From Fulvia fulva (Eukaryota > Ascomycota > Dothideomycetes > Mycosphaerellales > Mycosphaerellaceae), in the NCBI RefSeq assembly GCF_020509005.1, contig NC_063012.1, forward strand, positions 2,418,001 through 2,482,000: a stretch of 64,000 nt of DNA. The letters run 5' to 3'. A program made the translations under genes and the position numbers. Within the stretch, counting starts at the first letter, position 1; the number at the start of each line of letters is the position of its first letter. Of the stretch, positions 5,644 through 61,687 are shown piece after piece. Below the pieces are notes generated by a model. It worked only from the letters and a program-made list of their open reading frames with translations. It was not told where the DNA came from and ran no database searches.

Positions 5644-6722
5644 TAAGGAAGGAATCGTATTTAGTAAGCTAGCTACGAGATAAGGTAATAAGTCTTAACC
5701 GCGCTTTCCTACTTATCTAGTACTACCGTATAGCCTCGTTTCGAGAGGTTAGCCCGGAGTAAAAGCTTCCCTCTACGCCCTCCCTCCCTATTTGCTCCTT
5801 AAGCTAATATCTACCTCTATAGGCCTAAGCCCTTTAGTACTCTCTATTAACCGATATACGTATCCGTCCTCTCGGGCTATATAGATAGTATTAGCCGTCG
5901 CTACTAGTATATACTACGCCCTAGGTTTTGACGCCCTTCGCGTTACCGTAGCCTATCTCTAGAAAGCGGCCGTCTATACCTCGTAGGTTTACTCGGGGCA
6001 TACACTACGCCGGGTAGCGTACTCCTTACGTTTCTACCTACTAACTAATATAAAGTTCCTTATTACCCTACCCTCGATCCTCCCCGATTATAGAACTAAT
6101 CTACTCGTATTATACGTCTTTTCCCCTTCCTAATAGCCGTCTTTTCCTTACTTAGGCTATCGTCTTTTCCTCGTCGTAATCTACTATATTAGACTAGGTA
6201 CGTTATGTAGCGGAATAGGTAGTACCTTAGGTAAAACCCTCGTTCCTATACCGGGTACTTAATAGGCCCTTATAGGCTTCGTCGCGTGTCTACCTACCCT
6301 CCGTATTGCCCGCTAGTAAAGACTACATTTGTTTTATAGTCCGCTCGACGCCGTTATATAGTCCGCTTAGTTGTTATTCTATAGTCCGCTCGTCTAATGT
6401 TCGTCGCTCGGCCCGCTCGGTTTACGGTCTCCGGAGGTAAAAATTCTATACTTATACTAGAGGTGTCCTATCGAGCGTATAGGCCACGGTTCCGCGCCCT
6501 TCTTATACGTAGAAAGAAGAGGAACTCGCTCCCGACACGAGTATACGCTCGTCGGATAGTTTTTATACCCGTTTTACTAGTAGTCCTCTATTCGCCGCCG
6601 CTTCGCCTACGTTACGCGCCCGTCGTACCTACGACGCTCTAGCGTAAGAATACTTAGCTCTCTCGTAGTAAGACGAGAGGTTCGTAGCCGATACTACGTA
6701 TAGGTAATTCTCGTCGTCGACC
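5644..6722 (-). mobile_element. W module, copy 1 (fused to LINE alpha)
   Basis: This module of about 1.08 kb matches 14935-16007, 52901-53977 and 60608-61687 along its whole length. Its sense strand (minus) starts ggtcgacgacgagaat and ends cgattccttcctt. It contains the conserved hairpin near its 5' end and three spaced TAGTCCGCTC repeats (plus-strand reading). I find no convincing protein on its sense strand. RIP damage is heavy compared with copies 3 and 4. Confidence 0.85.
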
Positions 6723-9485
6723 TATTATATTATATAGATAGTAATCGAAGTAGTAGTTAGATCTAAACGCTACCTCGCTAGTTTCCTAGAAGATATTAGG
6801 TTTTACGCGGAGAGCTACGGTAGTCTAAAGACGATATCGTATTCGAGGTCGGTAACGTAGTATAGTATTTACTCGTAATAACCGCCGATAACTACGTCTA
6901 TAAGGGCTATATATATGATCTAACGCGCTATAGCCGATCTATCTCCTAGTATTAATCGTCTATTCTTTATTAAAGAGATTAAGAGGGTTATATATTTACG
7001 TATAAATTTCTAATTAAGAAAGAGAGAGATAGAGGTAGAATCTATAAGGCCGCGAGCCTTTTTATGTTATATTATTACGGGTAATACTATATAAGGGTAT
7101 ATAGCTAGTTATTGTTTATCTAGTATATATACCGACATCTTAAGCTCCTTACTATAGTCCGTATCTTATATTCTATATCTCTTAATCTTATACTCTTTCT
7201 GTCTTAGAAAGTTCGGTTACTAACCGCTATCTACTACGCTTAGGTAGCGGTCGTACTATTTCCCTATTGCTATAGGTCGGTAGTGAGGGAGCTAAGGTTC
7301 GGGTTAGCGTTCGCGTTATTTCGTAGACGTAGAGGGCGGTAGTCGCCGTCGTAACTATATATCGGGTATTCGGGGTTCGTTAATACGTACGAGCCTATAC
7401 GGTAGCGGTAGTACTTACCCTACTTCTTAAGGTCCTTACGCTACTTACGGTTTAATAAAGGCAGGTTCTATATATAAACCGGTAGGTCCTCCTTCTTCTT
7501 CGTACCTACGTATTATAGTAGTCGCTAGACGATTATAGCGGTCGTACTAGTAGCTACGGCACCTACGGTATTACTACCGCCCTATACGCCGTTATTATTC
7601 GAATTAGGGTTACTACGTAGGCGCTCCTTCTATAGATATAGTCGGTCGGTCTCGTAGAAGCTCTTATCTAATACCGTATATTCCTTAATAACATCCTATA
7701 TGTCGTATAAGCGTCTATCTACTTCCCTATCGCCGAAAGTCTTAATAAAGTACTTACGGTTTAGGCGGTTACGAAATAGTATTAGCTTAGTCTCGTTAGT
7801 CTACTCTATCTAAGTACGTAGCTTTAAGTAGCGAGCGTAGAAGGTAATAAAGATCTCGCCCTACTCCTACTTATAGGTAGCGATATTAACTATAGCCTTA
7901 GTTCCTTCGTTACGGGTACCGTACTAGCGCGTTATCTAATCTAGTAGTTCTTTACTAGTCTTAAACTCGTTAAATAATTGTTATCTAGGTATAGGAATCC
8001 TCGGCTTAATACTTCTCTAAGGGTCACCCTATGTCTATCTATATATAAAACGTAGGTCGTCTACCTCGGAGCGGAAAGTAGTTATAGTTAGCTTAAGAAG
8101 TACGCTACTATACTAACTATTAAAGTTAGGGTCGTTATCGTTCTTAAAGTACTTCGGGTTAGGTACGCCCTTACTAACCTCGATACCGCGTATTAGAGTA
8201 CGGTTAATAGTAAATAAGCGTTCTAAAAGTTCGGTTAGAAGAGTCTATATACGGGTATTACGCGCTCGAGAGTCGCGACCGTTATTATTATTAGGTCGTA
8301 GACAGTTTCTATTACGTCCTCGGTCGTTATTACTATTACCGTTATTATTATCGTTACTACTACCTCCTCCGCCGCCGCCTCTACTAGTAGCTTTACGATA
8401 CTTACGTATTAGCTACTCGAGTAAAGTCTCGCGCGGAGGTAAGTAGGAGGGTCGGCGACTAGAGCGGCCCCTACCTCTATTCTATATAGTGTCTTTAGTA
8501 GCTTAGAGTCGAGTCTTTAGATCGTTAACCTCCTTCTATAGAGCCTAGTTCTTAGCTTCGGCATCCTATACCTTCTTCTTCTCCTTTTTATAAATCTCGC
8601 TAAATTACTTATATAGGTTATTAGCCTCCCTATACTTCTTCTCTACCTCTTACAACTTTACTAGGTTATAATCCTTCTGACTCTTTAGGTCTACGGCTAT
8701 CTTCTATATTATAGCCTCCTCGCTTTATAGTATCTTATAGATACGGTTATACTCGGTATATAGCGTAGTATAATAGGTGTTCTAGAGGTTATTAGCTCGC
8801 TCTATTATATCGAGTTGTCTACCTTTAGTAATCGCTATATTTACTACCTATAGTACAAAGTCGTAGGTAGTCTTCGGGTACTAGGATACGAGAGTCGTAA
8901 GTTTGTCTAGTATAACATTCTAGTATTCGGATACGAGAATGTGCTCTACCTCGTCGAGTAATAGGTATACCTCGTCTAGGTCGCCGCCTAGGTTCTCTTC
9001 GAGCTTAAATTCGAACAGTTCTATAAAGTCAATCTTACTACCTTCTTCTCGCTCGAAGGCTTTCTAGTAAGCTTTATTAATTTCCTATTATAGCGCGATA
9101 CCGGTGTCTACTATAACCCGCCGGTTATCGTCCTATATCTAACTCTAAGGAAAAGAGGAGAGGTCGGGAAAAAGAGATATACGCTACTTACCTTTACTCT
9201 TAGGCTTTAGTAGTAGTAGTATACCGCCGTTCGTCTAAAAAGTTATATTATCTAGATTCGGGGGAGGCGTAACGATGCCTATTTCCTAACTATCTACGAG
9301 CGCGCGACTACCTACTAATAATATCGCCGCGTTACGTTCTCTAGGCATTTACGCGCTCTACGCCTTACCGTATTCTAAATCCTAATACGACTCTACGCGT
9401 TCTTCGAGTTCTATAGTTTTGTCTATTCCTATTATTACGCGTCCCTTACCTAGATCCGTAATCTAGGTAGGGTAGTAGAACAAAC
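6723..9485 (-). pseudogene. Gyp1 leader, gag and start of pol, remnant
   Basis: Reading leftward from the LTR at 9486, this holds the untranslated leader, a long gag region and the start of the protease region. It is collinear with 53978-56387 plus 49640-49982 on the same strand. Stretches read as charged helical gag sequence, but stops are frequent. A run of tta and gtta repeats at about 8280-8360 would encode a polar low-complexity segment. The pol part is cut at 6723, where the LINE chimera lies. It is RIPed more than the copy at 53978-56387. Confidence 0.7.
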
Positions 9486-9707
9486 TATAAGGGCGCGCGT
9501 ACCGTAGGGTCCGAATAAGAGAGTTATTACTCTACAAAGATACGAAAGATAAGCGCGAGGCGCGGCGGAGTTATAGAGTAAAGCTAAGCCGCGCTAACCC
9601 GATACGGAAGGTCCGCGGTTTACCCGGGCCGACGTAGCTATAGTAAGGGGTCGCGGGCTACCCGGGCCGACGTAGCTATAGTAAGGGGTCGCGGGCTACC
9701 CGTAATA
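9486..9707 (-). repeat. Gyp1 LTR with internal 38-bp tandem duplication
   Basis: This is an inverted Gyp1 LTR. On the minus strand it begins tattacgggtagcccgcg, the RIPed form of TGTCACGGGCAGCCCGCG. It is 222 bp, exactly 38 bp longer than the 184-bp LTRs at 11803 and 56388. The excess is the tandem duplication at 9626-9701. It abuts plus-strand Gyp1 integrase sequence at 9708, which is not a normal LTR neighbour in that orientation, so this is a rearrangement junction. Confidence 0.85.
9626..9701. repeat. 38-bp tandem duplication inside the LTR
   Basis: Two identical adjacent copies lie at 9626-9663 and 9664-9701, each beginning gggccgacgtagctatagta. The other LTR copies hold one. The two units show no mutual differences although the surroundings are RIPed, so the duplication probably arose after RIP or stayed too short to be a RIP target. 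Confidence 0.9.
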
Positions 9708-10690: not shown

Positions 10691-10708
10691 CCTATATATA
10701 TATATATA

Positions 10709-11986: not shown

Positions 11987-13170
11987 CCCGTAATCTTTAG
12001 TCCGGAGGTTATACTATATACTATAAAGACGATAGACCTTCCGCTAGAAAGCTCGTATATTATAGTAGTAGGTAAAGCGGGTAGTAAGCTAGTACGTATT
12101 CTAATAGATCCCGGTACCGAGTCGCTATTTTATAATACGAAGTTTATAAAGAAATATCTATTACGAACACGACTACCTTAGGCTTAGAAGATAGGCCTAG
12201 GAGCTAACCCTAAAGTATCTAGTCAAGCTATAGAATATATTAAGACTAAGGTCGACCTAAACGGTTATATCGAGGAAGTTAGTTACTTTGTTACTAAGCT
12301 CGACTACGACTTTGTATTTAGTATACTCTAGTTCTAGAAGTACTGCCCTATACTAGACTAGAGAGCTAATATATTTATATCTACTAAAAAGTACTATACG
12401 GATCATTACGATCCTTACCCTACGACTATCGGCGGTACGAAGGTTTGTATATAGTACGCTATCCCTTATTTATAGACTCTAGACCCTAATATCTAGGTGT
12501 CTAGTATAACAATTGGCGAAGCCTATAAAGAAAACCTAGACAAAGGTTACCTTATTTAGGAAATAGGGACTCTTAACCCTAATAAGCTAGAGCCTACGAC
12601 TAAGGAACTTCTTTACGATATTAGTATACGGCTAAGTACTATATTAGCTAAAGACAAGGCTATCTATATAAACAAGAAGCAAGCGACTATATAAGAAGTC
12701 AAATCCTTACTACCCTAATAGCTAAAGGACCTAAAGCACGGATTTAACCCCTCTATCGCTAAAGGCCTACCTCCCTATCGCCCCGAATTAGATTTAGCGA
12801 TTGAATTCGTTAAAGGCGCTAAGCTACCTTTTAAGCGTCCTTATTCTATATCGAAACTAGAGCCCGATATAACTAAAGCCTACGTCGATAAGGAAGAAGC
12901 CGCTAGTAAAATCCGACGCTCTACGTCCTAGATCGCTAGTCCTATTATTATTATTAAGAAGCTAGGTAGAGGACTCCGTATCTACGTAGAGTATAGAGCT
13001 ATTAACGCTATCACCGTTAAGAATAGGTATACGATACCTTAAGTCTATAAGATCCTAGCTCGTATAAGCGGTATATAGTAGTTTACTACCTTATACATTA
13101 TTATAGCATTTAACGAGCTACGTATCTATAAAGGCGACGAATAGAAGACAGCCTTTACTACCCGACATAG
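11987..13170 (+). pseudogene. Gyp2 protease and N-terminal reverse transcriptase
   Basis: The plus strand reads as a Gypsy pol polyprotein. The aspartic protease core appears as ILIDPGTESLFYNTKF from about 12094. The start of the reverse transcriptase follows with [14 protein letters not shown] near 12970-13015 and AFNELRIYKGDE near 13110-13140. Reading stops in KTAFTTR at 13147-13165, where the gamma-W chimera is inserted, and continues in phase after it at 16008. The gag region and 5' LTR are not in the window; the Gyp1 3' LTR abuts at 11986. Stops are frequent. Confidence 0.85.
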
Positions 13171-13190
13171 ATAGATAGATATTTCATTAA

Positions 13191-13220
13191 GCTGTTGTAG
13201 TGCCCTTTGGCCTATATAGC
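13191..13220 (-). other. LINE gamma 3' stem-loop
   Basis: In the element sense strand this 30-nt segment reads GCTA at its 5' end (GCTG before RIP) and CAGC at its 3' end, enclosing AGGCC and AGGGCACTA. The same fold with other paired bases occurs in delta and epsilon. It lies just inside the ATCT tail, where many LINE reverse transcriptases recognise their RNA. Confidence 0.65.
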
Positions 13221-13229
13221 TATACTATC

Positions 13230-14934
13230 TTGTTTTTATATATATAGAGGGGAGACCGTGTTAGTAAAAACCCCTCCTCCTTCCCGTCTGTCTTTTCCTC
13301 CTAGTTGTCGTCTTAAATTTCCCTTATTAGGGGTACGCTAGTGTTATAGGCCTGCCCTAATGACTACCCTATCTACAACCCCCCTCGCGTCCGCCTCTTG
13401 TCTATCTACTCCTCCGTCTCGCTCGCGAGGCTAAACTACTAGAGGTATCCCTACTATAGTATCTACCGAGAGATTTGGCGAATGTTGCCTTTGTCCCTAA
13501 TAATTAACTTATAGTCTCTCCTTCCCGCTCGGTACCTCTAATATCCCCTGCCTCTCGCCTACTACGGGCATCGTAGTAGTATATGTTCTAGGTTTTACGA
13601 TAGGTAGCTATACTAGTAGGCTAGGCTATAGATGTCTAGTGCGCGTCTCCTGAATAGGTAGGCCCTTAATCTAATATATTCGGACCTGATTTGGATTGCT
13701 ATACTTGCTTCGGCCCTTGTCAGGTCCCTATATAGCTAGTAATTATGTCTCTAGAAGGCTCGGAGCGCTATCGGGCCTATTGTCTTAGGGGGCTTCCTTT
13801 TCTAGTCCTGCTCCTATAGGTAGCTCGCTATCTGTTCCGCTAGGCTTTAGGTCTTAGCCTTGCTCCCGCCGGTCTAGCGAGTCCTACGCTCCTCCTCCTT
13901 TCGTGCTAGCTATTCGGTACTTGTCTATACGGCCGTAAAGGTAGTAAGGTCATCCTCTTTTTGGCTTGTCCTATGTCCTGCCCCTCTCCGGTAGCGGCTT
14001 TCTATCTTATTCTTTACCTACTAGATCGTAGTTTATACTAGGTAATCTATCGTCTTTACCGCGTATTAAATTCTTATTCCCCGGATGTACTAGCCGATTA
14101 GTAGTGTTCCTGTCTCTATTTCTACCGTGCTTATTAACGTTGTCTTATATACGCCTAGTACCCTACGTAGGTTACCTACCTATATCCTATTTAGGGGTTG
14201 CTCTATCCGTTTCGAGATCGGCTTGCCTACGCCTCCTATTCTCTAAATCTGTGCCCCGTATAACATAGCTAGTCTAACGATCGCCTTATATATTACTCTT
14301 ACCTTGTCGAATGTTACTCCCTATATAGATACCGTAAGCCTCTTTATCGAGGCTTTATTAACTTACGCTCGACTCTAGGCTTTCTTAATCTATATATTCT
14401 AGCTTAGCTTCGGGTCGAGCTAGATCCCTAGTACTCGTAGCTCCGCTAATAGCTTGGTCTCGTAGCCTTAGATTCTTACCGCCGCCTTTATATTATAGTA
14501 TGTTCTCGCTTTACTAAAGTGTATAAGTTAGTACTTTTTAGGGGCGAACCGGGCACTATGCTTCTTTACCTACTCCTCGTATTTCTTGTGCCTATCTTTA
14601 AGGAGGCGACAGTTCTCTTCTATCGAGTCTAACTAAGCTAGGATGTTTATATCGTCTACGAACCCCGATACTAAGGTTTACGGAGAGGTAAGTAGGGGGA
14701 TTAGATCCGACATAAATATTAGAAACAGGATAGGGGAGAGAGTAGATCCCTAAGGTATTCTAGTCTCTACCTTTACCGGGTCGGACGTATACCTTCCTAG
14801 GACTAGGTATGTCGTCCGTTCCTAGAGAAAGGAGTAGACGAACGTTGTTACCTACTAGGGGATGCCTTTCTACTATAGGATATATATTAGCATTTAGTAT
14901 AAGACGTTATCGAAGGCTCCTACGATATCGAGGG
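13230..14934 (-). pseudogene. LINE gamma ORF2 3' half (reverse transcriptase palm to C-terminal Cys/His)
   Basis: The minus strand begins inside reverse transcriptase motif A with LDIVGAFDNV directly at the W junction. It then passes the catalytic FVDD motif near 14655-14675 and continues through an LIHFSKARTYYNI block near 14510-14550 to a C-terminal segment reading YLSxNLEHILL near 13580-13610. All sequence upstream of motif A is missing, so this copy could not encode an active enzyme even without the stops. Confidence 0.75.
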
Positions 14935-16007
14935 TAAGGAAGGAATCGTATTTAGTAAGCTAGCTACGAGATAAGGTAACAAGTCTTAACCGCGCTTTCC
15001 TACTTATCTAGTACTACCGTATAGCCTCGTTTCGAGAGGTTAGCCCGGAGCAAAAGCTTCCCTCTACGCCCTCCCTCCCTATTTGCTCCTTAAGCTAATA
15101 TCTACTTCTATAGGCCTAAGCCCTTTAGTACTCTCTATTAACCGATATACGTATCCGTCCTCTCGGGCTATATAGATAGTATTAGCCGTCGCTACTAGTA
15201 TATACTACGCCCTAGGTTTTGACGCCCTTCGCGTTACCGTAGCCTATCTCTAGAAAGCGGCCGTCTATACCTCGTAGGTTTACTCGGGGCATACACTACG
15301 CCGGGTAGCGTACTCCTTACGTTTCTACCTACTAACTAATATAAAGTTCCTTATTACCCTACCCTCGATCCTCCCCGATTATAGAACTAATCTACTCGTA
15401 TTATACGTCTTTTCCCCGTCCTAATAGCCGTCTTCTCCTTACTTAGGCTATCGTCTTTTCCTCGTCGTAATCTACTTTATTAGACTAGGTACGTTATATA
15501 GTAGGATAGACAGTACCTTAGGCAAAACCCTCGTTCCTATACCGGGTGCTTAATAGGCCCTTATAGGCTTCGTTACGTGTCTACCTACCTACCGTATTGC
15601 CCGCTAGTAAACACTAGATTGTTTCGTAGTCCGCTCGACGCCGTCGTATAGTCCGCTTAGTTGTTATTCTATAGTCCGCTCGTCTAATGTTCGTCGCTTA
15701 GCCCGCTCGGTTTACGGTCTCCGGAGGTGAAAATTCTATACTTATACTAGAGGTGTCCTATCGAGCGTATAGGCTACGGTACCGCGCCCTTCTTATAAAA
15801 GAAGAGAGACTCGCTCCCGATACGAGTACACGCTTGTCGGATAGTTTTTATACCCGTTTTACTAGTAGTCCTCTATTCGCCGCCGCTTCGCCTACGTTAC
15901 GCGCCCGTCGCGCCTACGACGCTCTAGCGTAAGAATACTTGGCTCTCTCGTAGTAAGACGAGAGGTTCGTAGCCGATACTACGTATAGGTGATTCTCGTC
16001 GTCGACC
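14935..16007 (-). mobile_element. W module, copy 2 (fused to LINE gamma)
   Basis: This is a full-length W module of 1,073 bp with the same two ends as the other copies. It is mostly TA-converted. The hairpin near the 5' end keeps its arms ctctcgt and acgagag at about 15949-15968, with loop agtaag. Its 5' end is followed at once by the target-site duplication, so the reverse transcript ran to the very end of the W RNA. Confidence 0.9.
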
Positions 16008-18972
16008 TTACTACCCGATATAGTACCTACGAATAGCTTATAGTACTATTTAGTCTCTATAACGTACTAAGCACGTTCTAGGTATATATTAATAAAGTAT
16101 TATATAGACACCTAGACGACTTCGTGTCTATATACCTAGACAACTATATCGTATTTACGTATAGTTTATTTAGGGACATATAAAACACGTACGTACTATT
16201 ATTAAGTGTCTAACTAACGCTCGACTTCCTATAGACGTCTATAAGTACCGCTTCTTCTAGAAGAGCGTCAAGTTCTTAGGACTAATTATTACTAATAAGG
16301 GCATTTAGATAGATAAATCTAAGTTCTAGACTATTATAGATTAGGCTACTCTATAGAGCTTAAAGGATGTGCTATCCTTCCTTAGGCTAGCTAACTTCTA
16401 TAGAAGGTTCGTTAATAACTTTTCCGGTATCGTTATACCTTTTACCGACCTTATACGCGGTAACGTACTTAAGAATTGTACACCCTTTGTATAGAGCCTA
16501 GAATACTAAAGTGCGTTCGAGACCCTAAAGGTAGTATTCTATAAACGCCTAGTATTAGTACATTTTAATATTCCTAAGCCCTACGTCGTAGAAACTAATT
16601 CCTTAGATAGGTATATAGCTAGCGTATTGTCTTAGGTTAAAGAGGACGGTGAATTACATCCTATCGTATTCTACTCGATAAAGATAAACCTAGTAGAATA
16701 TAATTACGAGATTTACGATAAGGAGCTAATAGCTACTATTAGAGCGTTTAAGGAATAGAGGCCGGAGCTAATAAGCGCTCCCTCTAAGGTTCTTACCGAC
16801 TATAAGGGCTTAGAGTAGTTTATAACGACTAAGTAGCTAACCCGCCGATAAGCGCGCTAGAGCGAGTTCCTATCCGGGTTCGACTTCTAGATAGAATGTC
16901 GCCCTAGTAAGCTTAGGACAAAGCCCGATAGCCTTACGCGCCGTAGATAAGACATAGACGATAAGGATAATATAAAACATAGGTAGTAAGCTATATTAAA
17001 GCTACGTAATCTCCCTCCTAATATACGTAAGCGCTTAAAGCTATTAGCTATAACTACTCCGCGTACTACGGCCGACTAGTATTAATTAGTACTTTACGTA
17101 CTCGAAGTAAACGAGGCCTCTATCGAAGAACTTATCGAGGAAGCCTATACTAAAGACGAGCTAGCGTACGGTATTAAGAAGGCCCTAGACGACAATACTT
17201 ATACTTTACTATAAAACCTAGAAGGCTCTAGCTATATCTCGCTTAGCGACTATAAGTTAGACGGTGACCTAATTAAGATCTAAGGACGTATATATATACC
17301 GTATAAGCTTCGTCCGGAGCTAATAGCGAGGTACTACGATACTCTATTAGCTAGGTATCCTAGGCGTAAGAAGACAGTCGACCTACTTACGTATACGTAC
17401 TACTAGCCTAGTCTAGTAGTAGATATTACTAAGTACGTTAAGAATTATTACCTATATATACGATCTAAGGCTCTTTATAATACGTACTAAGGTATACTCC
17501 GATAGTTACCCGTACCCTCGGGTACCTATAAGGAGGTAGTACTTAGTTACGTAGTAGAGCTACCGGACAGTTATAGTACTAAGGGCGTGAAGTATAACGC
17601 TATCCTTACCCTAGTCTATAGACTTACTAAGAGGAAGCATCTTATACCCGTAGTAGATTTGACCCCTAAGGTAGCGGCCGACGCCGTATTAAAGTACGTA
17701 ATTAAGGATTAGGGCCTATTCGATACGGTAGTATTAGACCGTAGTAGTTAGTAGGTAAGCTAATTCTAAAAGGCTCTAATAGCGCGTCTAGCTATACGTA
17801 TAAAGATCTCGACTGCCTTTTACCCTTAGACTAATAGGTAGTTAGAACGTACGAACTAAGCTATAGAATAGTACCTACGCGCGTACGTTAACTATACGTA
17901 GGACGATTAGGTCTAGTAGTTACCTATCGTAGAGTTTGCCCTAAACAATTAATAGAGCGCTACTATAGGTATATTACCGTTCTTCGTAACGCTAGGCCGT
18001 AATCCTCGAATAGAGGTATTACCTTAGGCTACGAGCGGTAACGGTACTAAGCTTCCGAAAGTATAGGCCTTATCGAAGCGGTACGTAGAAGATTTCGCGA
18101 CTTTTATAGAGAACGTTAACGTATACTATATTATATAGCTTAGATATACCTAAGAGCGGTACGTAGACACTATAGTAAATAAGCGTAAGCCTATACTAAG
18201 ATACGCGATCGGCGATAAGGTTTAGCTAGATACTAGAAATATCCGTACTTAAAGGCCCTATAAGAAACTTAACTATAAGAATATAGGTCCCTTTACGATT
18301 ACCCGTAAGATTAACGTAGACGTATACGAGCTCGACCTTTAGGAAAGTATACGTATATACCCGAGGTTCTATACTAGTATTCTACGCCTAGTAAACGACG
18401 ACCTATTACCTAATTAAAGCTAAGGTTAACTACTTATCGAGGCCTCCGAAGGCGATAGCGAAGAGCTAGAGAAATACGCGGTTAAGGCGATTATAGATAG
18501 TAGATAGACTAGTAGAGCTAAGAAGTACGTAAAGTATACCGTCCGCTAGGAAGGTAGTACTATTATAGAAGTGCCTTATAGCAAATTAAAAGGTAGTACC
18601 GAGGAAGCGATAGTAGATTATTATTATAAGAACCCGTTAGCGGCCGGTCTACTACCTAGATAGCGTAAGCCTAAAGGTTAGATATTAGACGACCTAGATA
18701 TCGTTACCGATAGTCGACCCTACGACGTCTACGTAATATAGATACAACTTAAGGTAAGCTAAGGCTTAATATATAGTAAGCTTGTCTAAGGTATACTACT
18801 ATATAATATAGACTCTCAACTTAAGGCTTACTACGGCAATATATATAGTCTCTCTACGGTTAACCCGACGTAAGCTAGCGCTTCCTAATAGTACGGTTCT
18901 TCCTTACGGATATATCTTACGGCGATATGTTTCCCCGTAGGAGGGCGTATAGCGGTTTAAGAGGGAGGGTAG
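16008..18972 (+). pseudogene. Gyp2 reverse transcriptase, RNase H, integrase, chromodomain
   Basis: This continues the Gyp2 pol frame. The reverse transcriptase active site reads YLDNYIVFT at about 16133-16159, where YLDD is expected (Asp to Asn by RIP). RNase H is seen as [12 protein letters not shown] near 16700-16735. An H2C2-type integrase start lies near 17390-17480, with the integrase core over about 17540-18000. A chromodomain-like end reads AVKAIIDSR, KYVKYTVR and AIVDYYYKNP over about 18480-18640. The purine tract gagggagggtag at 18961-18972 ends the internal part. Stops are numerous. From about 17228 on, this is repeated in inverted orientation at 44051-45795. Confidence 0.85.
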
Positions 18973-19459: not shown

Positions 19460-19639
19460 ATAGATAGATAGATAATTCATTTACCCGTTATAGTGCCCTC
19501 CGGCCTATACGGGTTTATGTCTATATATATTGCTATATAAGGTAGAAAACCTGTTCCTAGGTAAAAACCTCCTCTCCTTCTTTAATAGCTTCCTTACTAT
19601 AAGTTCTTAGTTTTCCTTCTATTAGGGTGTACTAGTGTT

Positions 19640-22600: not shown

Positions 22601-23060
22601 GTTGAAGTCTCCTAGCACGATATGTTAGGAGTCACTCTACAAGATGTCTGGCAGCTATTGTAGTGTACCTAGCTAGGTGCTGCTTCTGGAGCTAGGGGGT
22701 GGGTTGTATACACTGTGGATGTAGATGCTGCCTTGGTTAGTGTTGAGTCTGACTGAGGTGATGTCTCCCCCTTCCTATTGGATTTGTTCCTAGCTGTCTG
22801 TTGCTATCTCTTTGCTGATGTACATACATGTTCTAGGGGTGCCTTGTTTAGCTAGGAGTGTGTGATACCTTAGGTCGTTAGTAGTGGATAGTCTGTTAGA
22901 TTTGCTGTTAATCTAAGGTTCCTAGACTGCAATGACTAGGTGTTTCTTTGGGTCTAGTGCTTAGAGAAAGCTTCTCTGGACCTTGTGCTGGCTTTTGTTG
23001 ACATTGTACTAGATAGTAGTAAGATTGGGTGTCTTAATCATGACTTATCTATGCTGGTCT
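19640..23060 (-). pseudogene. LINE delta ORF2 (endonuclease and reverse transcriptase)
   Basis: Read on the minus strand, the endonuclease begins near 23050 and contains GDFNLHHP at about 22595-22620 and a region ending SLSDHLPIQVEFE near 22350-22390. The reverse transcriptase follows: an open stretch at 21296-21523 reads VLRKPQKEDYTKLK and IGGRKQRSTLTAIELI, which are fingers and palm blocks, and the FVDD motif lies at about 20965-20990. The C-terminal part carries SEHIGVRAY-like sequence and a Cys/His motif near 19880-19960. Stops are fewer than in other copies but still prevent expression. Confidence 0.8.
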
Positions 23061-23099
23061 CCTGCTAGTCTTCTCGTGCTTCCTACTGCTAGCTACTAT

Positions 23100-24301: not shown

Positions 24302-24309
24302 TGTCTTCT

Positions 24310-49982: not shown

Positions 49983-50017
49983 TGTCAGGGTATATAGATA
50001 GATAGATTATTCATTCG

Positions 50018-50047
50018 CCTGTTTTAGTGCCCTATGGCCTATGCAGG
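50018..50047 (-). other. LINE epsilon 3' stem-loop
   Basis: The sense strand reads CCTG, then CATAGGCC, ATA, GGGCACTA, then AAA and CAGG. CCTG pairs with CAGG, and TAGGCC can pair with GGC-A-CTA leaving a bulged A. This un-RIPed copy gives the clearest view of the shared fold. Confidence 0.7.
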
Positions 50048-50196
50048 TCTCTCGCTATTTAGGTCTATTTGTGTAGGTAGGAAACCCGATTAACGGATGA
50101 AAACCTCCTCGTCTTTGCCCTCCTCGTTCTTTCCTGTCTTGTCCTTTCGTTCTCCTTCCTTCAGGGTACGCTAGTGTCATGGTTGTTACCCTATGA

Positions 50197-52900
50197 CTAC
50201 CTTGCCCGTAACCCTGGTGATGTTCTCCTCTCGATTCCCTTTCTCCCTTCTGTTTCCCCGGCTCTTCTCTCTCTCTCCCTCCTCTCTATCCACCTTTCCG
50301 TTTCTACTGCTAGGGAGAATTGCTCTAGGTAGTCCTCGTTAAGGATCCATCTTGTCACTCTCCTTATATCTTGTCTGTCCTGGATGATGGCCTGGTATTG
50401 CCTGTCTCTTGCCTTCGCCCTCCACTGGCTTCTCCCTTTTACCCACTTAGTACAGTTCAGCACCATGTGCTCCGGGTTTTGGGATAGGTAGCCACAGGGG
50501 CAACGTTTGGAATCGTATCCTGGGACTCTTCTTTGGTGCAAGTATGCTCTCAGCCCAATGTGCTCAGAGCGAATCTGGATAGCTATGCTTGCTTCCGCCC
50601 TCTTCAGGTCTTTATAGATAAGGTAGTTATACCTCCCGAAGGTCCTGGCCGCTGGTGGGGCTCCTGGCCTCACCGGTTTTTGGTTCCAACGCGTTTCCCA
50701 TAGGTGACCTGCGATCCTTTCTGCTTGGCTTTGCTTCTTTTTCCCTTTGTCCCCTGTGTTAGCTTGCTCCCTCAGAGCTTCTCTCTGTTCAAGGGCTGCT
50801 AGGATTTCCTGTGATGTTTTTAGGTCTGCTTCCTTCTGTGGGATCATGTGTGGCCGGTTGGGTCTTCTCCTCCTCTCCCACTGGGTTCTTATCCTTTGAG
50901 TAGCTGCTTGGATGGTTCCCTGGGCTGGGTATGCTGATGTCTTCTCTGCGTATTGACACCTCATGCCCTGGAGGTACTCCCTGATGGGGGCTGTACCTGA
51001 TTCCATTTCCATTGTCCTGTGAGGGGTTGACTTGTATGCCCCTAGTACTCTCTTTAGGCAGGCTGCCTGCGCTCTGTTGAGGGGGTCCTCAATTCTCTTC
51101 GGGATGTGTTTTTCCGCTGCCCAAATTGCTGCTCCATATAGCATTGCGGGCTTGACAATGGCCTTGTACATGGTCTGGGCCTTTGTGAAGGTCGCCCCCC
51201 AGGTTGACGCAGTGAGTCTCTCGATTGATTGTCTGTTGGTGTCCGCTCTCGCTTGCGCCTTCTTCACTTGTGGTCCCCAGCTGAGTTTCGGGTCTAGCCA
51301 TATCCCAAGGACTCTGAGTTCCCTTGTAGGATGGGTCTCGAACCCTGGATTTTTACTGGTGCTGCCAAGTTGTGTTTTGTCTTTGCCTTGCTAAAATGGA
51401 TAAGTTGGTACTTGTCCGGTGCGAATTTTGCCCCATGCTCTCTTGCCCACTTTTCGCATTGTCTATGTCTCTCCTCTAGGAGCGCGCAGTTTTCCTCTGT
51501 GGACCCCGACCACGCTAGGATATTTGTGTCATCCACGAACCCCGATGCTGAGGTGTTTGCTGTTTCTAGGAGTGGGGTCAGGTCGGCCATAAAGAGGAGG
51601 AACAGAATTGGGGAGAGTGTAGAGCCCTGTGGGATGCCCGTGTTCGCAATTGGGGTCTGCGGGGCTTTGAAGGACCCTAGGAGGATCTGGGTTGTTCTGT
51701 CCTTAAGGAATGACTGCACAAAGTGTACTATCCAGGCTGGGATGCTTTTCATTCTGAGGATGTGTAGGAGCCTTGCGTGGGACACATTGTCGAAAGCCCC
51801 TGATATGTCTAGTGAAAGCAGTGAGGCTACCTTGTTGTTGCCATAGTGCCAGATGTGTCTGATTTGCTCTGTGATCAGTTCGACTGCTGTGAGGGTAGAT
51901 CTCTTTTGTCTCCCCCCCATTTGCGTTGCCGGGAGGAGGTTGTGTTCTTCTACTATTCCGGTGAGCCTTGTAGCCACGACCTTCTCTAGGAGCTTCCCTA
52001 GTGTGTTCAGCAACGCAATTGGTCTGTATGACTTCAACTTGGTATAGTCTTCCTTTTGGGGTTTCCTTAGGACGCAAGTCAGTGATTGCCTAAAGGCCTT
52101 TGGGCAATACCCCTGCTTCATGCACTGGGTAAAGATTGGCGCAAGCACTGGAGTGATAAGGCTGCTGCTAGCTTTTAGGTAACAGTTAGGGATCTTGTCT
52201 GGGCCTAGGGCTTTGTTGCCCTTCAGTTTCTTGATAATGTTTCCGATCTCTATAGCAGACACTTGCCAGTTAGCCTCCCTTGGCGGAGGAATGTGTGTTC
52301 CTGGGATGTTGCTTAGGTCTGCCTCTACCTGAGTCCCGAAGAAGTGGTCTGCGAATGCTTTCGCTTTCCCTATCGGAGTGGTTTGCGTTTCCCCGTCTTG
52401 GTCCTGTATTGAGGGAAACTGGGGCGGGGAGTTTCGTTCCTCGTCTGGTTTCCTGGCCCATTCTGCTAGTCTCCAGATTTGTTCCGGGTGTTCTGTGATC
52501 ATCCCTACAGTTGACCTCCACTCCTGCGTCTTGTCTCTTCTGATCTGCGCCTTCTTTGCTTTGCACGCGTTGTTATAGGCTTTTCAGTTTGCTTGGGTGC
52601 GTCGTTGCTCCCATCTCCTTCTTGCTCTCCTTGCCTCCTTGACTTTGGCTGTGCACTCTGGTGTCCAGTATGGCTTCTGGTATAGCGACCATCTCTTCTC
52701 AGGTATATGGGCCTGGGCTGCCCTTTGCATAGCTTCTATCAGCTGCTCCACTGCTTGGTCAATCCCCTCCGTTGTGTGTATGTTGTCAATGTTCACCTGT
52801 TCTAGTTCGCCTTCTAGCCGCTGCTGTACTAGTGTCCACTCGGCCTGCTTCCAGCAGAGCCTCCTCTCAGGTTCCCTCTCCTCCTCAACTGTGAGTTGGC
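50197..52900 (-). pseudogene. LINE epsilon ORF2, nearly intact (reverse transcriptase)
   Basis: This is the best preserved LINE coding region. It begins, after the W junction, between endonuclease and reverse transcriptase. Reverse transcriptase blocks are NKALGPDKIPN, VLRKPQKEDYTKLKSYRP, SLDISGAFDNVSH, GIPQGSTLSPILF and the catalytic GFVDDTNILAW. The C-terminal region has SEHIGLRAYLHQR and the Cys/His motif CPCGYLSQNPEHMVLNC. Only two lesions are seen: an in-frame TGA at 52581-52583 and a frameshift near 51325-51340, after which the frame continues as RVLGIWLDPKLSWGP. Endonuclease and ORF1 are absent, so the copy could act only in trans. No RNase H is seen. Confidence 0.85.
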
Positions 52901-53591
52901 AAGGAAGGAATCGTATTTAGCAAGCTAGCTACGAGATAAGGTGACAAGTCTTAACCGCGCTTTCCCACTCATCTAGCACCACCGTGTAGCCTCGTTTCGA
53001 GAGGTTAGCCCGGAGCAAAAGCTTCCCTCTACGCCCTCCCTCCCTGTTTGCTCCTTAAGCCAATATCCACCTCCATAGGCCTAAGCCCTTTAGTGCTCTC
53101 TATTGACCGACATGCGCATCCGTCCTCTCGGGCTGTACAGACAGTGTCAGCCGTCGCTGCCAGTGTACACCACGCCCCAGGTTTTGACGCCCTTCGCGTT
53201 ACCGCAGCCTATCTCTAGAAAGCGGCCGTCCATGCCTCGCAGGTTTGCTCGGGGCACACACCACGCCGGGCAGCGTACTCCTTGCGTTTCCACCTACTAA
53301 CCAATATGAAGTTCCTTATCACCCTGCCCTCGATCCTCCCCGATCACAGAACTAATCCACTTGCATTGTACGTCTTTTCCCCGTCCTAACAGCCGTCTTT
53401 TCCTTGCTCAGGCTATCGTCTTTTCCTCGTCGCAATCTACCATGTCAGACTAGGTGCGTTGTGTAGCGGGACAGGCAGTGCCTCAGGCAAAACCCTCGTT
53501 CCCATACCGGGTGTTCAACAGGCCCTTACAGGCTTCGTCGCGTGTCCACCTACCCACCGCATTGCCCGCTGGCAAACACCAGATTGTTTCG

Positions 53592-53646
53592 TAGTCCGCT
53601 CGACGCCGTTACATAGTCCGCTCAGTTGTTGTTCTGTAGTCCGCTC
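53592..53646. repeat. Three spaced 10-nt repeats in the W module
   Basis: TAGTCCGCTC occurs at 53592-53601, 53614-53623 and 53637-53646, a spacing of 22-23 nt, close to two helical turns. The triplet is kept in the other three W copies. It could be a protein-binding array or an RNA motif; the function is unknown. Confidence 0.7.
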
Positions 53647-53914
53647 GTCCAATGTTCGTCGCTCAGCCCGCTCGGTTTGCGGTCTCCGGAGGTGAAAATT
53701 CTGCACTCATACCAGAGGTGTCCTGTCGAGCGTATAGGCCACGGTTCCGCGCCCTTCTTACACGTAGAAAGAAGAGGGACTCGCTCCCGACACGAGTACA
53801 CGCTCGTCGGATGGTTTTCATACCCGTTTTGCTGGTAGTCCTCTGTTCGCCGCGGCTTCGCCTACGTTGCGCGCCCGTCGCGCCCACGACGCTCCAGCGT
53901 GAGAATACTTGGCT

Positions 53915-53934
53915 CTCTCGTAGCTAGACGAGAG
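53915..53934. other. W module hairpin near its 5' end
   Basis: Arms ctctcgt (53915-53921) and acgagag (53928-53934) form a perfect 7-bp stem with a six-base loop. Flanking ggct and agcc could add an outer stem. It lies about 45 nt from the W 5' end and is kept in all copies with loop changes only (agctag or agtaag), which suggests that the structure mattered. Confidence 0.7.
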
Positions 53935-53977
53935 GTTCGTAGCCGACACCACGTACAGGTGATTCTCGTCGTCGACC

Positions 53978-56387
53978 TGTCAGGGTATATAGCTAGCTAT
54001 TATTTATCTAGTACGTATGCCAATATCTTAAGCTCCTTACTATAGTCTATTACCGTCTCTTACATTCCGTGTCTCTTAATCTTATACTCTTTCTGTCCTA
54101 GGAAGTTCGGGTAACCGCTATCTACTACGCTTAGGTAGCGGTCGTACCATTTCCCTACTACGGATCGGCGGCTAGGGAACTGAGGTTCGCGTTCGGATTC
54201 GGCGTAGTATTACGTAGACGCGGTAGGCGATAGTCGCTATCGTACCTATATATTAGGTATTTAGGGTTAGTCGATATATAAGAACCTATACGGTAGCGGT
54301 AGTACTTACCCTACTTCTTAAGGTCTTCGCGCTACTTACGGTTAAGCGTAGGTAGGTTCTATAGATATAACGGTAGATCCTCCTTCTTCTTAGTACTAGC
54401 GTACTATAGTAGGCGCTATACTAAGGTACCTACTATACCGGTAGCGGTACTAGTAACTACGTTACCGTTGTTCTAGTTATTCTAGCCGCTATTACCGTTC
54501 GAGTTACTATTACTACGGGGGCGCTCCTTCTACGGGTATAGTCGATCTGTCTCGTAGAAGCTCTCGTCTAGTACGGTATACTCCTCGATAACGTCTTATA
54601 TACTATCTAGGCGGCGGTCGACTTCGCGGTCGCCGAAGGTCTTAATAAAGTACTTACGGTTCAGTCGGTTACGGAATAGTATAAGCTCGGTCTTATCGGT
54701 CTATAATATCTAGGCGCGTAACTTCGAGTAGCGTATATAGAAGGCTATAAAGGTTTCGCCTTGTTCTTGCTTATAGGTAGTAATATTAACTATAGCCTTA
54801 GTTCCTTTATTACGTATACTATATTAGCGTGTTATCTAATCTAACAACTCTTCTCTAGTCTTAAACTCGTTAAAGGACTACTATCTAGGCATAGGGATCC
54901 TCGGCTTAATGCTTCGCTAAGGATCAACTTACGTCTACCTATACACGAAGCGTAGACTATCTGCCTTAGTACGGAAGGTTACTATAGTTAGCTTTAGGAG
55001 AACACTACTATACTAGCTATCGAAATTAGGGTCATTATCGTTCTTGAAGTACTTAGAGTTAGGCACACCCTTACCGATCTCTATACCGCGAGTAAGGGTG
55101 CGGTTAATAGTAAAGAGACGTTCTAGAAGGTCAACTAGTAGTGTCTAGGTACGGGTATTACGTATTCTCGAGTCACGACTATTGTTAGGTCCTAGTCGCG
55201 GACGGTCGTTATTACGTCCTCGGCTATTGTTACTATAGTTATAGTCGTCTCTATCGTTATTACTACCACCGCTACCGCCACCTCTACTAGTAGCTTCGCG
55301 ATACCTATATAATAGCTACTCGAGTAAGGTCTCGCGTAGGCGGGAACGAGAGGGTCGGCGGCCTAAGCGGCCCCTACCTCCGTTCTATATAGTGTCTCCT
55401 ACCTTAAGCCGAGCCTTTAGGTTATCGACTTCTTGTTATAGGGCCTAGTTCTTCACCTTAGTATCTTGTACCTTCTTCTTCTCCTTCTCGTAGATCTCGC
55501 TAAACTACTTATATAGGTTGTTAGCTTCCTTATATTTCTTCTCTAGCTCTTATAACTTAGCTAGGTCGTAATCCTTCTTACTCTTAAGATCTACTACTAT
55601 TTTCTATATAATAAGCTCTTCACTTCGTAGTATCTTATAGATACGGTCGTATTCGGTATATAGCGTAGTGTACTAGGTGTTCTAGAGGTCGTTAGCTCGC
55701 TCTATTATATCGAGTTATCTGCCCTTAGTAATCGCCGTATTAACTACTTATAGCACGAAGTCGTAGGTAGTCTTCGGGTGTTAGGATGTAAGGGTCGTAA
55801 GGTTGTCTAGGGTAACATTCTAGTATTCGGATACGAGAATGTGTTCTACCTCGTCGAGTAATAGATACACCTCGTCTAGGTCGCCGCCTAGGTTCTCTTC
55901 GAGCTTGAACTCGAACAGTTCTATAAAGTCAATCTTACTACCTTCTTCTCGCTCGAAGGCCTTCTAGTAAGCTTTATTAATCTCTTGTTATAGCGCGACA
56001 CCGGTGTCTACTATAACCCGCCGGTTGTCGTCCTATATCTAACTCTAAGGAAAAGAGGAGAGGTCGGGGAAAAGAGATATACGCTACTTGCTTTTGCCCT
56101 TAGGCTTAGGTAGCGGTAGTATACCGCCGTTCGCTATTTATAAAGTTATATTATCTAGGTTCGGGAGAGGCGTAACGGTGCCTATATCTTGACTGTCTAC
56201 GAGCGCGCGACCACCTACTAATAATGTCGCTACGTTACGTTCTCTAGGTATCTACGCGCTATACGCCTTACCGTATTCTGTGTTCTAATACGACTCTACG
56301 CGTTCTCGAGTTCTACGGTTCTGTCTGTTCCTATTGTTACGCGTCCCTTACCTAGATCCGCGATCTAGGTAGGGTAGTAGAACAAAC
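53978..56387 (-). pseudogene. Gyp1 leader and gag remnant
   Basis: Reading leftward from the 5' LTR, this holds the leader starting gtttgttctactaccc next to the LTR, then gag. It is collinear with 6990-9485. Gag reads as long charged, partly helical segments, with a polar repeat rich in gtta at about 55190-55290. It is continuous with pol at 49982 once the LINE is ignored. No tRNA-complementary primer site is evident after the LTR. Confidence 0.7.
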
Positions 56388-57280: not shown

Positions 57281-57293
57281 GGTTATAAGCCCG
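57281..57293 (+). promoter_or_regulatory. Cop1 primer-binding site, initiator tRNA-Met anticodon type
   Basis: ggttataagcccg is the RIPed form of GGTTATGAGCCCG, whose complement CGGGCTCATAACC matches the anticodon stem-loop of initiator tRNA-Met. Copia-like elements of the Ty5 and copia type use such an internal, half-tRNA primer. It lies directly after the LTR. Confidence 0.65.
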
Positions 57294-58805: not shown

Positions 58806-58825
58806 ATAGATAGATGATTCATTTA

Positions 58826-58855
58826 CCCGTTGTGGTGCCCTCCGGCCTATGCGGG
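58826..58855 (-). other. LINE delta 3' stem-loop
   Basis: The sense strand reads CCCG, CATAGGCC, GGA, GGGCACCA, CAA and CGGG. CCCG pairs with CGGG where epsilon has CCTG with CAGG, a compensating change. The ATCT tail follows. Confidence 0.7.
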
Positions 58856-58999
58856 TTTATGTCTATATATGTTGCTACATAAGGTAGGAAACCTGTTCCT
58901 AGGTAAAAACCTCCTCTCCTTCTCTAATAGCTTCCTTGCCATGAGTTCTCAGTTTTCCTTCCATTAGGGTGCACTAGTGTCATGGTGGTTAGCCTCTGA

Positions 59000-60607
59000 C
59001 TACCTTGTCTGCAACCCTGGAGTTGTCCCCCTCTTCCTGCTCTCCTCCTCCTTCTTTCTCTCCTCAATCCATCTCTCTGTTTCCCTAGTAAGAGAGAACT
59101 GCTCCAAAAATCCTTGGTAGATGATCCACCTTGTAATTCTCTGGAGGTCTCCCTTATTGCTGATCATGGCTTGGAAGTTTCTGTTCCTTGCCCTTGCCCT
59201 CCATTCACCTCTCCCTGTACTCCATTCTTTGCAAACCAGAAGTCTATGTTCGACATTCTGGGACAGGTAGCCGCATGGGCAACTCTTGTCTTCGATACCT
59301 GGGACTTTTCTCTGATGCAGGTATGCCCTGACTCCGATGTGTTCAGAGCGGATTTGTATTGCTATGCTTGCTTCTGACCTAGTCAGGTCTGAGTACAGTA
59401 GGTAGTTGTGGCTACCAAACTGTTGGAGTGCCTTTGGGGTTCCTGGCCTCTGTGGGGTTCTTGTCCATTCAGTCTTCCAGAGGAGTCCTGCCATCCTTTC
59501 AGCTAGAGACTGTTGCTTCTTCCCTTGGCTGGCTGCTGATTCTCTCCCCTGAGCCCCTCTGTCCTGTTCCTGCTGGGCTAGGTGCAGCTGTTCTGTTAGT
59601 TCTTTGAACTTCTGCAGGTCCTGCTGCTTCTGTGGGGCTGGATTGGGTCTTGCTTGTCTGTGCCTTCTTGTGCACTGGCTCCTGATTTTGTTGACTGCCT
59701 TCTGGATTACTAGCTGGGCTAGGTATGCAGACGTCTTTCTTGCATACTGGTATCTCAACCCTTGAAGGTAGAGCTTGGCTGGTGGGGAGCCAGACTCCAT
59801 TTCGACCACCCTTGTTGGAGTTGACTTGTATGCTCCAAGCACCTTTTTCAGACAGGAGGCTTGGGCTCTGCTGATAGGATCTGCAATTCTCTTTGGGATC
59901 TTGTCTTAGGCTGACCAGATCTGGGCTCCATATAGCATAGCTGGCTTCACAATGGCCTTGTACATAACCTTTGCTTTCGCAAATGTGGCTCCCTATGTAG
60001 AGGCTGTAAGCCTGTCAATTGATTGCCTGTTGTTGTCTGCTCTTGCCTGTGCTTTCTTGACCTGTGGTCCCCAGCTGAGCTTTGGATCCATCCATATTCC
60101 TAGCACCCTTAATTCACTTGAGGGTTCTGTTGTGTGTCCCTGAATAGTGATTGGGGCTTGTATATTGTGTCTGTTTCTGGCTCTACTGAAGTGGATGAGT
60201 TGATACTTCTCTGGGGCAAATCTGGCTCCATGTTTCCTGGCCCATTCCTCACATTCCTCGTGTTTCTTCTGCAAGATTCTACAGTTCTCTTCTGTGCTGT
60301 CTGACCAGGCTAGGATGTTTGTGTCATCCACAAACCCTGAGGCTGATGTGTTTCTAGAGTTTAGCTTTGCTGGCAGGTCTGCCATAAAGAGGAGAAACAG
60401 GATTGGAGACATTGTTGATCCCTGTGGGATTCCTGTCTCTGTAGGCATGCTGTCAGATTTGTATCTGCCCAGTCTTAGTCTTGTGGTTCTGCCTCTGAGG
60501 AAGGACTGGATGAACTGGACTGTCCAGTTGGGGATAGCCTTCTGTTTTAGGATGTGGATCAGCCTCTGGTGTGAGACATTGTCAAAGGCTCCTGATATGT
60601 CCAGTGA
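59000..60607 (-). pseudogene. LINE delta ORF2 3' half, two stops only
   Basis: One frame runs from the W junction to 59000 with two stops. It begins with SLDISGAFDNVSHQRL (motif A), then GIPQGSTMSPILF, GFVDDTNILAW, LIHFSRARNRHNIQ, SEHIGVRAYLHQRK and CPCGYLSQNVEHRLLVC. The stop at 59993-59995 is TAG where epsilon has TGG, and the one at 59906-59908 is TAA where CAA is likely. Both are RIP changes. Everything before motif A is missing, so the enzyme could not work. Confidence 0.85.
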
Positions 60608-61687
60608 CAAGGAAGGAATCGTATTTAGCAAGCTAGCTACGAGATAAGGTGACAAGTCTTAACCGCGCTTTCCCACTCATCTAGCACCACCGTGTAGCCT
60701 CGTTTCGAGAGGTTAGCCCGGAGCAAAAGCTTCCCTCTACGCCCTCCCTCCCTGTTTGCTCCTTAAGCCAATATCCACCTCTATAGGCCTAAGCCCTTTA
60801 GTGCTCTCTATTGACCGACATGCGCATCCGTCCTCTCGGGCTATACAGACAGTGTCAGCCGTCGCTACTAGTGTACACCACGCCCTAGGTTTTGACGCCC
60901 TTCGCGTTACCGTAGCCTATCTCTAGAAAGCGGCCGTCTATACCTCGTAGGTTTGCTCGGGGCACACACCACGCCGGGCAGCGTACTCCTTGCGTTTCTA
61001 CCTACTAACCAATATGAAGTTCCTTATCACCCTGCCCTCGATCCTCCCCGATCATAGAACTAATCCACTTATATTATACGTCTTTTCCCCGTCCTAACAG
61101 CCGTCTTTTCCTTACTTAGGCTATCGTCTTTTCCTCGTCGCAATCTACTATATTAGACTAGGTACGTTGTGTAGCGGGACAGGCAGTGCCTTAGGCAAAA
61201 CCCTCGTTCCTATACCGGGTGTTTAATAGGCCCTTATAGGCTTCGTCGCGTGTCTACCTACCTACCGCATTGCCCGCTAGTAAACACTAGATTGTTTCGT
61301 AGTCCGCTCGACGCCGTCGTATAGTCCGCTCAGTTGTTATTCTATAGTCCGCTCGTCTAATATTCGTCGCTTAGCCCGCTCGGTTTACGGTCTCCGGAGG
61401 TGAAAATTCTACACTTATACTAGAGGTGTCCTGTCGAGCGTATAGGCCACGGTTCCGCGCCCTTCTTACACGTAGAAAGAAGAGGGACTCGCTCCCGACA
61501 CGAGTACACGCTCGTCGGATAGTTTTCATACCCGTTTTACTAGTAGTCCTCTGTTCGCCGCGGCTTCGCCTACGTTACGCGCCCGTCGCGCCTACGACGC
61601 TCTCTAGCGTAAGAATACTTGGCTCTCTCGTAGTAAGACGAGAGGTTCGTAGCCGACACTACGTATAGGTAATTCTCGTCGTCGACC
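60608..61687 (-). mobile_element. W module, copy 4 (fused to LINE delta)
   Basis: This is 1,080 bp with the same ends as the others. Its 3' 250 bp are almost identical to copy 3. The 5' two thirds carry more C-to-T changes, an uneven RIP load along one module. Hairpin and triple repeat are kept. Confidence 0.9.

What the first reader, a model, noticed from the sequence alone, without database searches (positions are those of the whole stretch)
5644..61687. One 1.08-kb module (W) is fused to the 5' side of four different truncated LINE families
Copies at 5644-6722, 14935-16007, 52901-53977 and 60608-61687 share both ends exactly but are joined to LINE alpha, gamma, epsilon and delta. Three of the four chimeras are bounded by clear target-site duplications as single units (13155/16008, 49983/53978, 58791/61688). 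This fits template jumping: the LINE enzyme copies part of its own RNA from the 3' end, then switches to the 3' end of a W RNA and copies it to its 5' end. MINE elements in Magnaporthe (WEIRD plus MGL LINE) are the known parallel; I recall one LINE family there. Here W is taken up by four, which suggests that W RNA itself is a favoured acceptor, perhaps a structured non-coding parasite of LINEs.
Basis: partly seen in the sequence, partly recalled or inferred. Interest (0 to 1): 0.88.

Follow-up and report, generated by a model that had tools for sequence, protein, structure and literature searches.

The report
Ribozyme-tipped RNA hitchhiker on LINEs
In a probably fungal genome, a 1.1-kb non-coding sequence is present about 600 times and, in the 49 copies read, sits in front of mostly broken copies of at least four kinds of jumping gene (LINEs); it begins with a predicted self-cutting RNA and likely spreads by being joined to broken LINE RNA, much like a smaller case known from the rice blast fungus.

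Summary
W (about 1,078 nt, non-coding, minus strand) has 611 3' ends and 577 5' ends in the 67-Mb genome. Of 49 W 3' ends read, 46 run into LINE sequence by alignment, 2 by eye, and 1 into a truncated second W. Partners are at least four LINE families (46-67% ORF2 identity) plus two probable ones, at about 32 positions in 44 copies. One target-site duplication encloses W plus LINE in 18 of 20 loci. W is not the usual 5'UTR of LINE A or B: none of 20 such 5' ends read carries it.

New here: (1) W's first nucleotide is the predicted cleavage site of an HDV-like ribozyme; a descriptor written after seeing W hits only W starts in 524 kb and once in 163 Mb of random sequence, though Rfam's score is far below threshold. 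(2) LINE RNA is left at R-Y|C: 20 of 25 donors against 6% expected, close to the rule published for Magnaporthe MINEs.

Closest known: MINE (WEIRD+MGL). Template jump versus RNA ligation is unresolved; the origin of W's 3' end is unknown.

The parts
52900..53977 (-). W, best-preserved window copy, RNA sense on the minus strand; nt 1 = 53977, terminal G = 52900
   Evidence: 20 fetched genome copies are 99.7-99.9% identical over nt 1-1077
53901..53977 (-). predicted HDV-like ribozyme, W nt 1-77: P1 1-7/31-37, P2 11-16/72-77, P3 18-20/28-30, L3 21-27, P1.1 22-39 and 23-38, P4 45-50/57-62, J4/2 with C66-C-A-A
   Evidence: (RF02682, 13.1 bits, model 1-74 from 53977, gathering score 44 not reached)
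49998..52899 (-). 5'-truncated LINE family D (epsilon) joined to W
   Evidence: 99.7% to L019 LINE D; donor site a-T|CC
49983..49997 (.). target-site duplication, LINE side
   Evidence: 15 bp
53978..53992 (.). target-site duplication, W side
60608..61687 (-). W copy joined to LINE C (delta)
   Evidence: RIP-type changes; ribozyme descriptor not met
58807..60607 (-). 5'-truncated LINE C (delta)
   Evidence: 98.5% to L027
58791..58806 (.). target-site duplication, LINE side
   Evidence: 16 bp
61688..61703 (.). target-site duplication, W side
14935..16007 (-). W copy joined to a LINE A relative (gamma)
   Evidence: descriptor not met
13166..14934 (-). 5'-truncated LINE A relative (gamma), joined at the A3088 hot spot
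   Evidence: 91% to LINE A; same junction, up to 2 mismatches, at 28 genome places
13155..13165 (.). target-site duplication, LINE side
   Evidence: 11 bp
16008..16018 (.). target-site duplication, W side
5644..6722 (-). W copy joined to LINE alpha; no target-site duplication found
   Evidence: descriptor not met
4144..5643 (-). LINE alpha as far as read; stop-ridden, with a stretch like the start of ORF2 of A and B (by eye)
   Evidence: translation; no nucleotide match to A-D

Best explanation
W is most likely a non-coding RNA hitchhiker that starts with a predicted HDV-like self-cleaving ribozyme and is added to the 5' end of LINE copies when the LINE reverse transcriptase, having copied a LINE RNA that ends or is broken at R-Y|C, would go on to copy a W RNA from its 3' end to its 5' end. 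Shown by sequence: about 600 W ends; W directly before LINE in 48 of 49 read (46 by alignment, 2 by eye; in L012 and probably L019 a few non-LINE bases lie between); about 32 joining positions among 44 copies in at least four LINE families; no extra bases at the joint where the donor could be read; one target-site duplication around the whole; W nt 1 flush with that duplication in 16 of 17. Inferred: the ribozyme trims W out of read-through transcripts, as published for R2, and so sets the exact 5' end; target-primed synthesis starts on the LINE tail, so that W needs no LINE 3' end and gets a new tail at each move; LINE RNA is broken, or left by the enzyme, at R-Y|C. Unknown: what makes the exact W 3' end ...CCUUG, and where a source W gene lies.
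For: Counts with 0 in reversed controls. For 56 of 62 exact W 3' ends (the stretch covered by both capped lists) an exact 5' end lies at about one W length. Families among 44 copies (20 of the 40 near-full matches listed, 20 of the 100 exact 3' ends listed, 4 in the window): 16 A, 10 B, 12 C, 4 D, 1 that is 77% to D, 1 alpha. Joining points 3 nt apart in LINE A (1460/1463), and 3, 5 and 6 nt before the same GACAT of the reverse transcriptase motif in B, A and C, speak for repeated independent joining. Donor rule after dropping 5 donors read on decayed relatives: Y|C 22 of 25 (background 0.118), R-Y|C 20 of 25 (0.063), purine at the replaced base 1 of 25 (0.577); with all 30: 25, 23, 2. W itself as donor follows it in W-G-W(297-1077)-LINE B. 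Ribozyme: RF02682 aligns end to end from W nt 1; descriptor hits 20 of 20 loci and one window copy, all at W nt 1, and nothing else in 524 kb, 1 site in 163 Mb random, 10 of 24 known places in bacterial loci. 16 of 17 flush 5' ends. Full-length LINE A and B have other 5' ends.
Against: No RNA data: W RNA, its ends and ribozyme activity are untested. RF02682 scores 13.1 bits against a gathering score of 44, an unrelated SRP model scored higher in the same scan (17.5 bits), and RF02682 is not listed when all of W is searched. The nested fold of W 1-78 is no stronger than shuffles (z -0.49; pseudoknots are not modelled). The descriptor was written after seeing W. The likeness to the R2 catalytic primer (14 of 19) is reached somewhere in 4 of 200 shuffled W sequences. 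The sharp base rule at the joint looks more like RNA cutting than like enzyme pausing, which fits ligation as well. No solo W or source gene was seen among the 49 read; no head-to-tail W pair. Most read copies were picked as near-perfect or exact matches, so old copies are under-sampled.
Confidence: 0.55

Rival explanations
1. RNA ligation first: LINE RNA cut at Y|C would be sealed to the 3' end of W RNA by an RNA ligase, and the joined RNA then copied in one piece.
For: Joints without added bases and a strict donor rule with purine nearly excluded at the replaced base. PMC13174262 (passages) names RNA ligation and template switching as two routes for U6/LINE-1; PMC8857657 (passages) says that chimeras in human LINE-1 assays come from preligation.
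Against: Nothing here shows ligated RNA. R2 enzyme jumps best when its 1-2 overhanging bases pair with the acceptor end, which would leave no extra base either.
Confidence: 0.3
2. A few W-LINE chimeras arose long ago and are copied as units; shared junctions are copies, not hot spots.
For: The A3088 junction is at 28 places, some of them parts of larger duplications (L022/L023 are 99.96% alike over 7 kb).
Against: About 32 positions among 44 copies; points 3 nt apart; copies with the same junction have different duplications (L011, L022, window 14935).
Confidence: 0.1
3. W is the normal 5'UTR of a LINE and the rest are internal deletions.
For: HDV-like ribozymes are found at LINE 5' ends (PMC3774820, passages); L012 is W, 30 nt, then a whole LINE B, and L019 is W, about 6 nt, then LINE D with its ORF1 start.
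Against: 10 LINE-A and 10 LINE-B 5' ends read have no W. No exact W end lies directly upstream of 34 listed A and 29 listed B 5' ends on parts of contigs 1-2 (W ends with mismatches would be missed). LINE D has two such 5' ends in the genome, L019 with W and L071 without. Not tested for C, the D-like family and alpha.
Confidence: 0.04
4. Trans- or cis-splicing of W to LINE RNA.
For: Constant 3' edge of W, changing partner.
Against: The LINE base just before the retained part is C or T in 28 of 30 donors, so there is no AG acceptor.
Confidence: 0.01

Closest known systems
MINE (WEIRD + MGL LINE) of Magnaporthe (PMC2104539; text parts 1-3 of 5 read)
   Same: Full-length non-coding 1.1-kb RNA copy before 5'-truncated LINE, varied joining points with repeats, duplications around the whole, no solo copy found there, one three-part chimera, and a similar donor rule (mostly GCC, also GTC, GCT, once AGC, in the 18 rows of its Table 3; R-Y|C here).
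   Different: There 31 WEIRD-MGL elements plus one each with Mg-SINE and Mg-SINE-MGL; here about 600 W ends and at least four LINE families. No likeness to WEIRD seen, but only two published WEIRD primers could be compared. No ribozyme is mentioned in the parts read.
R2/R1 hybrid SIDEs of Drosophila (PMC3414825, abstract and passages)
   Same: An HDV-like ribozyme module before the 3' end of a foreign LINE.
   Different: Those are short families that the authors derive from internal deletion or recombination; W is 1.1 kb and joined at many points to several families.
U6/LINE-1 chimeras of mammals (PMC13174262, passages)
   Same: Full-length small RNA, sense, before LINE sequence, with duplications.
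   Different: U6 is a host RNA; W is a repeat without known host role.
HDV-like ribozymes, RF02682 and R2
   Same: Helix order, L3, P1.1 and a CNAA in J4/2 (my reading); R2 catalytic primer fits 14 of 19 at W 15-33.
   Different: No activity test; low Rfam score; P1.1 has G-C where I read C-G in RF02682.

Membership tests
MINE-type chimera | full-length non-coding RNA copy 5' of truncated LINE, one duplication around both | tested here: met
   18 of 20 loci have the duplication; 48 of 49 W 3' ends read go into LINE; L012 and probably L019 carry an untruncated LINE
MINE-type chimera | 5' part is WEIRD | tested here: inconclusive
MINE-type chimera | published joining rule GCC*A/U | tested here: inconclusive
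   the R-Y-C core agrees (against Table 3 of PMC2104539); the A/U after it was not tested
HDV-like ribozyme | nested double pseudoknot with P1.1, L3 and a catalytic C in J4/2 | tested here: met
   by sequence descriptor only, written after seeing W
HDV-like ribozyme | Rfam gathering score | tested here: not met
   13.1 of 44 bits; nothing at gathering in the window
HDV-like ribozyme | self-cleavage | not testable with these tools
   needs bench
SINE | internal Pol III promoter boxes | tested here: not met
   no B box by simple consensus, one A-box-like match
LINE 5'UTR | present on full-length copies | tested here: not met
   0 of 10 A and 0 of 10 B ends read; other families not tested

The most novel reading that the evidence does not exclude
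W is a new kind of non-autonomous retroelement, a 5' hitchhiker: a self-cleaving RNA with neither enzyme nor LINE 3' end, which enters the genome by being joined onto whatever LINE RNA is broken at R-Y|C, takes a fresh LINE tail at each move, serves several LINE families at once, and thereby caps truncated LINEs.
Probability: 0.4. Interest if true: 0.86.

Novelty: new variant of a known kind. Interest (0 to 1): 0.74.

Why it matters
If true, it turns a curiosity of one fungus into a likely class of parasite with a testable life cycle, adds a probable ribozyme that would explain the exact 5' end, and gives a sharp sequence rule seen in two systems, so that the open question of template jump versus RNA ligation in LINE chimeras can be tested.

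Tried and rejected
Head-to-tail W (tandem or circular source): pattern with 0-12 nt between W end and W start, exact flanks, 0 places. W as coding gene: longest ATG frame 52 codons on the sense strand, 91 on the other. W as SINE: no B box. Another known RNA in W: only a weak lncRNA match inside it; the last 100 nt fold less well than shuffles (z +1.96) and the last 150 no better (z -0.46). A first ribozyme pairing by eye without P4 was replaced by one with P4. Splicing: no AG at the donors. Plain truncated LINEs as control for the R-Y|C rule: held DNA gave too few clear cases, so whether W-less truncations follow it is open. Share of LINE insertions that carry W: the searches for LINE-A and LINE-B 3' ends did not complete. 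The pair B 295/297 is not used as evidence because it lies in a run of C. Literature: in the listings, WEIRD as the element showed only in Magnaporthe papers; one other paper listed with that word was not opened. HDV-like ribozyme with Magnaporthe and retrotransposon gave one R2 paper; one wider search found nothing.
Full report
Observation. All four W copies are present with common ends. W is read on the minus strand; nt 1 is 53977, the terminal G is 52900. The genome (67.2 Mb, 14 contigs) holds 611 W 3' ends and 577 W 5' ends at up to 2 mismatches, none for the reversed patterns. Of 62 exact 3' ends in the stretch covered by both capped lists, 56 have an exact 5' end at about one W length; the 5' side of the six others was not read.

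Anatomy. I fetched 20 of the 40 near-full-length matches listed, then 571-bp pieces (one of 561) at 20 of the 100 exact 3' ends listed, all on contig 1. With the four window copies that makes 44. Five more W 3' ends were met on the way (an old copy in L017, two in the W-W insertion, L072, L073), 49 in all. Of these, 46 run into LINE sequence by alignment (L012, L019, L027 and the window copies partly match library pieces cut from themselves, but coding parts of L012, L019 and L027 were checked, and epsilon, gamma and delta match other copies; alpha rests on its translation alone), L072 by eye in 550 bp and L073 by eye in 19 nt, and one runs into a truncated W. Families among the 44: 16 A, 10 B, 12 C, 4 D, 1 that is 77% to D, 1 alpha. 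L029, L031 and L047 are put to C because they align to one window copy, 19460-24300, whose continuity is assumed. ORF2 proteins of A-D are 46-67% identical, C being a partial one; A, B and D have endonuclease and reverse transcriptase domains, the piece of C reverse transcriptase. One duplication encloses W plus LINE in 18 of 20 loci, 12-16 bp in 17 and 19 bp in L015, where it runs into the tail repeat; L022 and L023 are one insertion within a larger duplication; L010 gave none, and for L019 only a longer repeat was found. Targets are TATATA-like and LINE tails (CTAT)n-like.

Not a 5'UTR. Ten LINE-B and ten LINE-A 5' ends were read; none has W. In the capped lists no exact W end lies directly upstream of 29 B and 34 A 5' ends. 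L012 has W, 30 nt that are not LINE B, then the whole LINE B: the RNA had probably started upstream of the LINE. L019 has W, about 6 nt not shared with L071, then LINE D with its ORF1 start.

The donor rule. For 40 of 44 copies an uninterrupted relative could be read, giving 30 contexts at 28 sites. The LINE base lying where W's G stands is C or T in 28 of 30, the next is C in 27, the one after C in 21, the one before a purine in 25. Dropping five donors read on decayed relatives, two of them repeats of a site, leaves 25: Y|C 22 (background 0.118), R-Y|C 20 (0.063), purine 1 (0.577); background from LINE A, B and D; P below 1e-15 for the first two if sites are independent. W itself, left at nt 297, follows the rule in the W-G-W(297-1077)-LINE B insertion. 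In PMC2104539 (Table 3) most MGL sites read GCC, others GTC, GCT and AGC; its authors propose a pause of the enzyme and found no microhomology. The A3088 joint is at 28 places.

The ribozyme. W 1-77 can be drawn as an HDV-like nested double pseudoknot with P1 starting at nt 1. RF02682 aligns over 1-74 of its 74 positions from exactly 53977 without a broken pair, but at 13.1 bits against 44, below an SRP model in the same scan; it is not listed when all of W is searched, and nothing passes gathering in the window. A descriptor (7-bp P1 from G, 3-bp P3, L3 with Y1 and G6, P1.1, P4, CNRA, P2) finds 21 sites in 523,820 bases, 20 in 20 loci and one in the window, each at W nt 1, and 1 in 163 Mb of first-order random sequence. 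It was written after seeing W, so this is partly circular; on 23 bacterial loci chosen by an RF02682 pattern it finds 10 of 24 places, misses 14, and finds 3 more of the same look. By my reading P1.1 is G-C/U-A in W and C-G/U-A in RF02682. The R2 primer likeness, 14 of 19, is reached in 4 of 200 shuffles. The nested fold alone is not unusual. Of the four window copies only 52900-53977 meets the descriptor; the others carry changes in P3 and P1.1.

Mechanism. A ribozyme would set a precise 5' end from read-through RNA, as published for R2 (PMC3774820, passages). LINE tails and duplications point to LINE machinery. Whether W is copied after a jump or after ligation is open; PMC8857657 (passages) favours ligation for human LINE-1, PMC13174262 (passages) leaves both open. 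I prefer the jump slightly because three-part insertions are natural as double jumps; the cut-like donor rule leans the other way. The source of W RNA and of its 3' end is the main gap.

Organism. Not named by the tools; RIP-type decay and LINE relatives in fungi (nearest named hit Podosphaera aphanis, 44% identity) suggest a filamentous ascomycete; this is inference.

Noticed in passing
L049/L050, G000:C3:1271400-1274097: W joined by G to a second W lacking nt 1-296, which is joined to LINE B: a three-part insertion. Only parts of it were fetched.
   Followed up: partly
L012, G000:C6:1192834-1193981: W joined to a LINE B RNA that seems to have carried 30 nt of upstream flank: a 5' transduction plus W.
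   Followed up: yes
L051-L070: The ten LINE A and ten LINE B 5' ends read are ragged, with several alternative starts.
   Followed up: partly
window 52900-53977, W nt 304-390 and 554-606: W holds spaced short repeats, GAGCGG (4 times, 22-27 nt apart) and AAAGACG (3 times, 23 nt apart); Tandem Repeats Finder reports none.
   Followed up: partly
window 30913-33920: Array of about 872-bp units made of LINE A relatives.
   Followed up: no
G000:C6:4797372, 4805946, 4814520: Three W-LINE A joints 8,574 bp apart, probably a tandem duplication containing the chimera.
   Followed up: no
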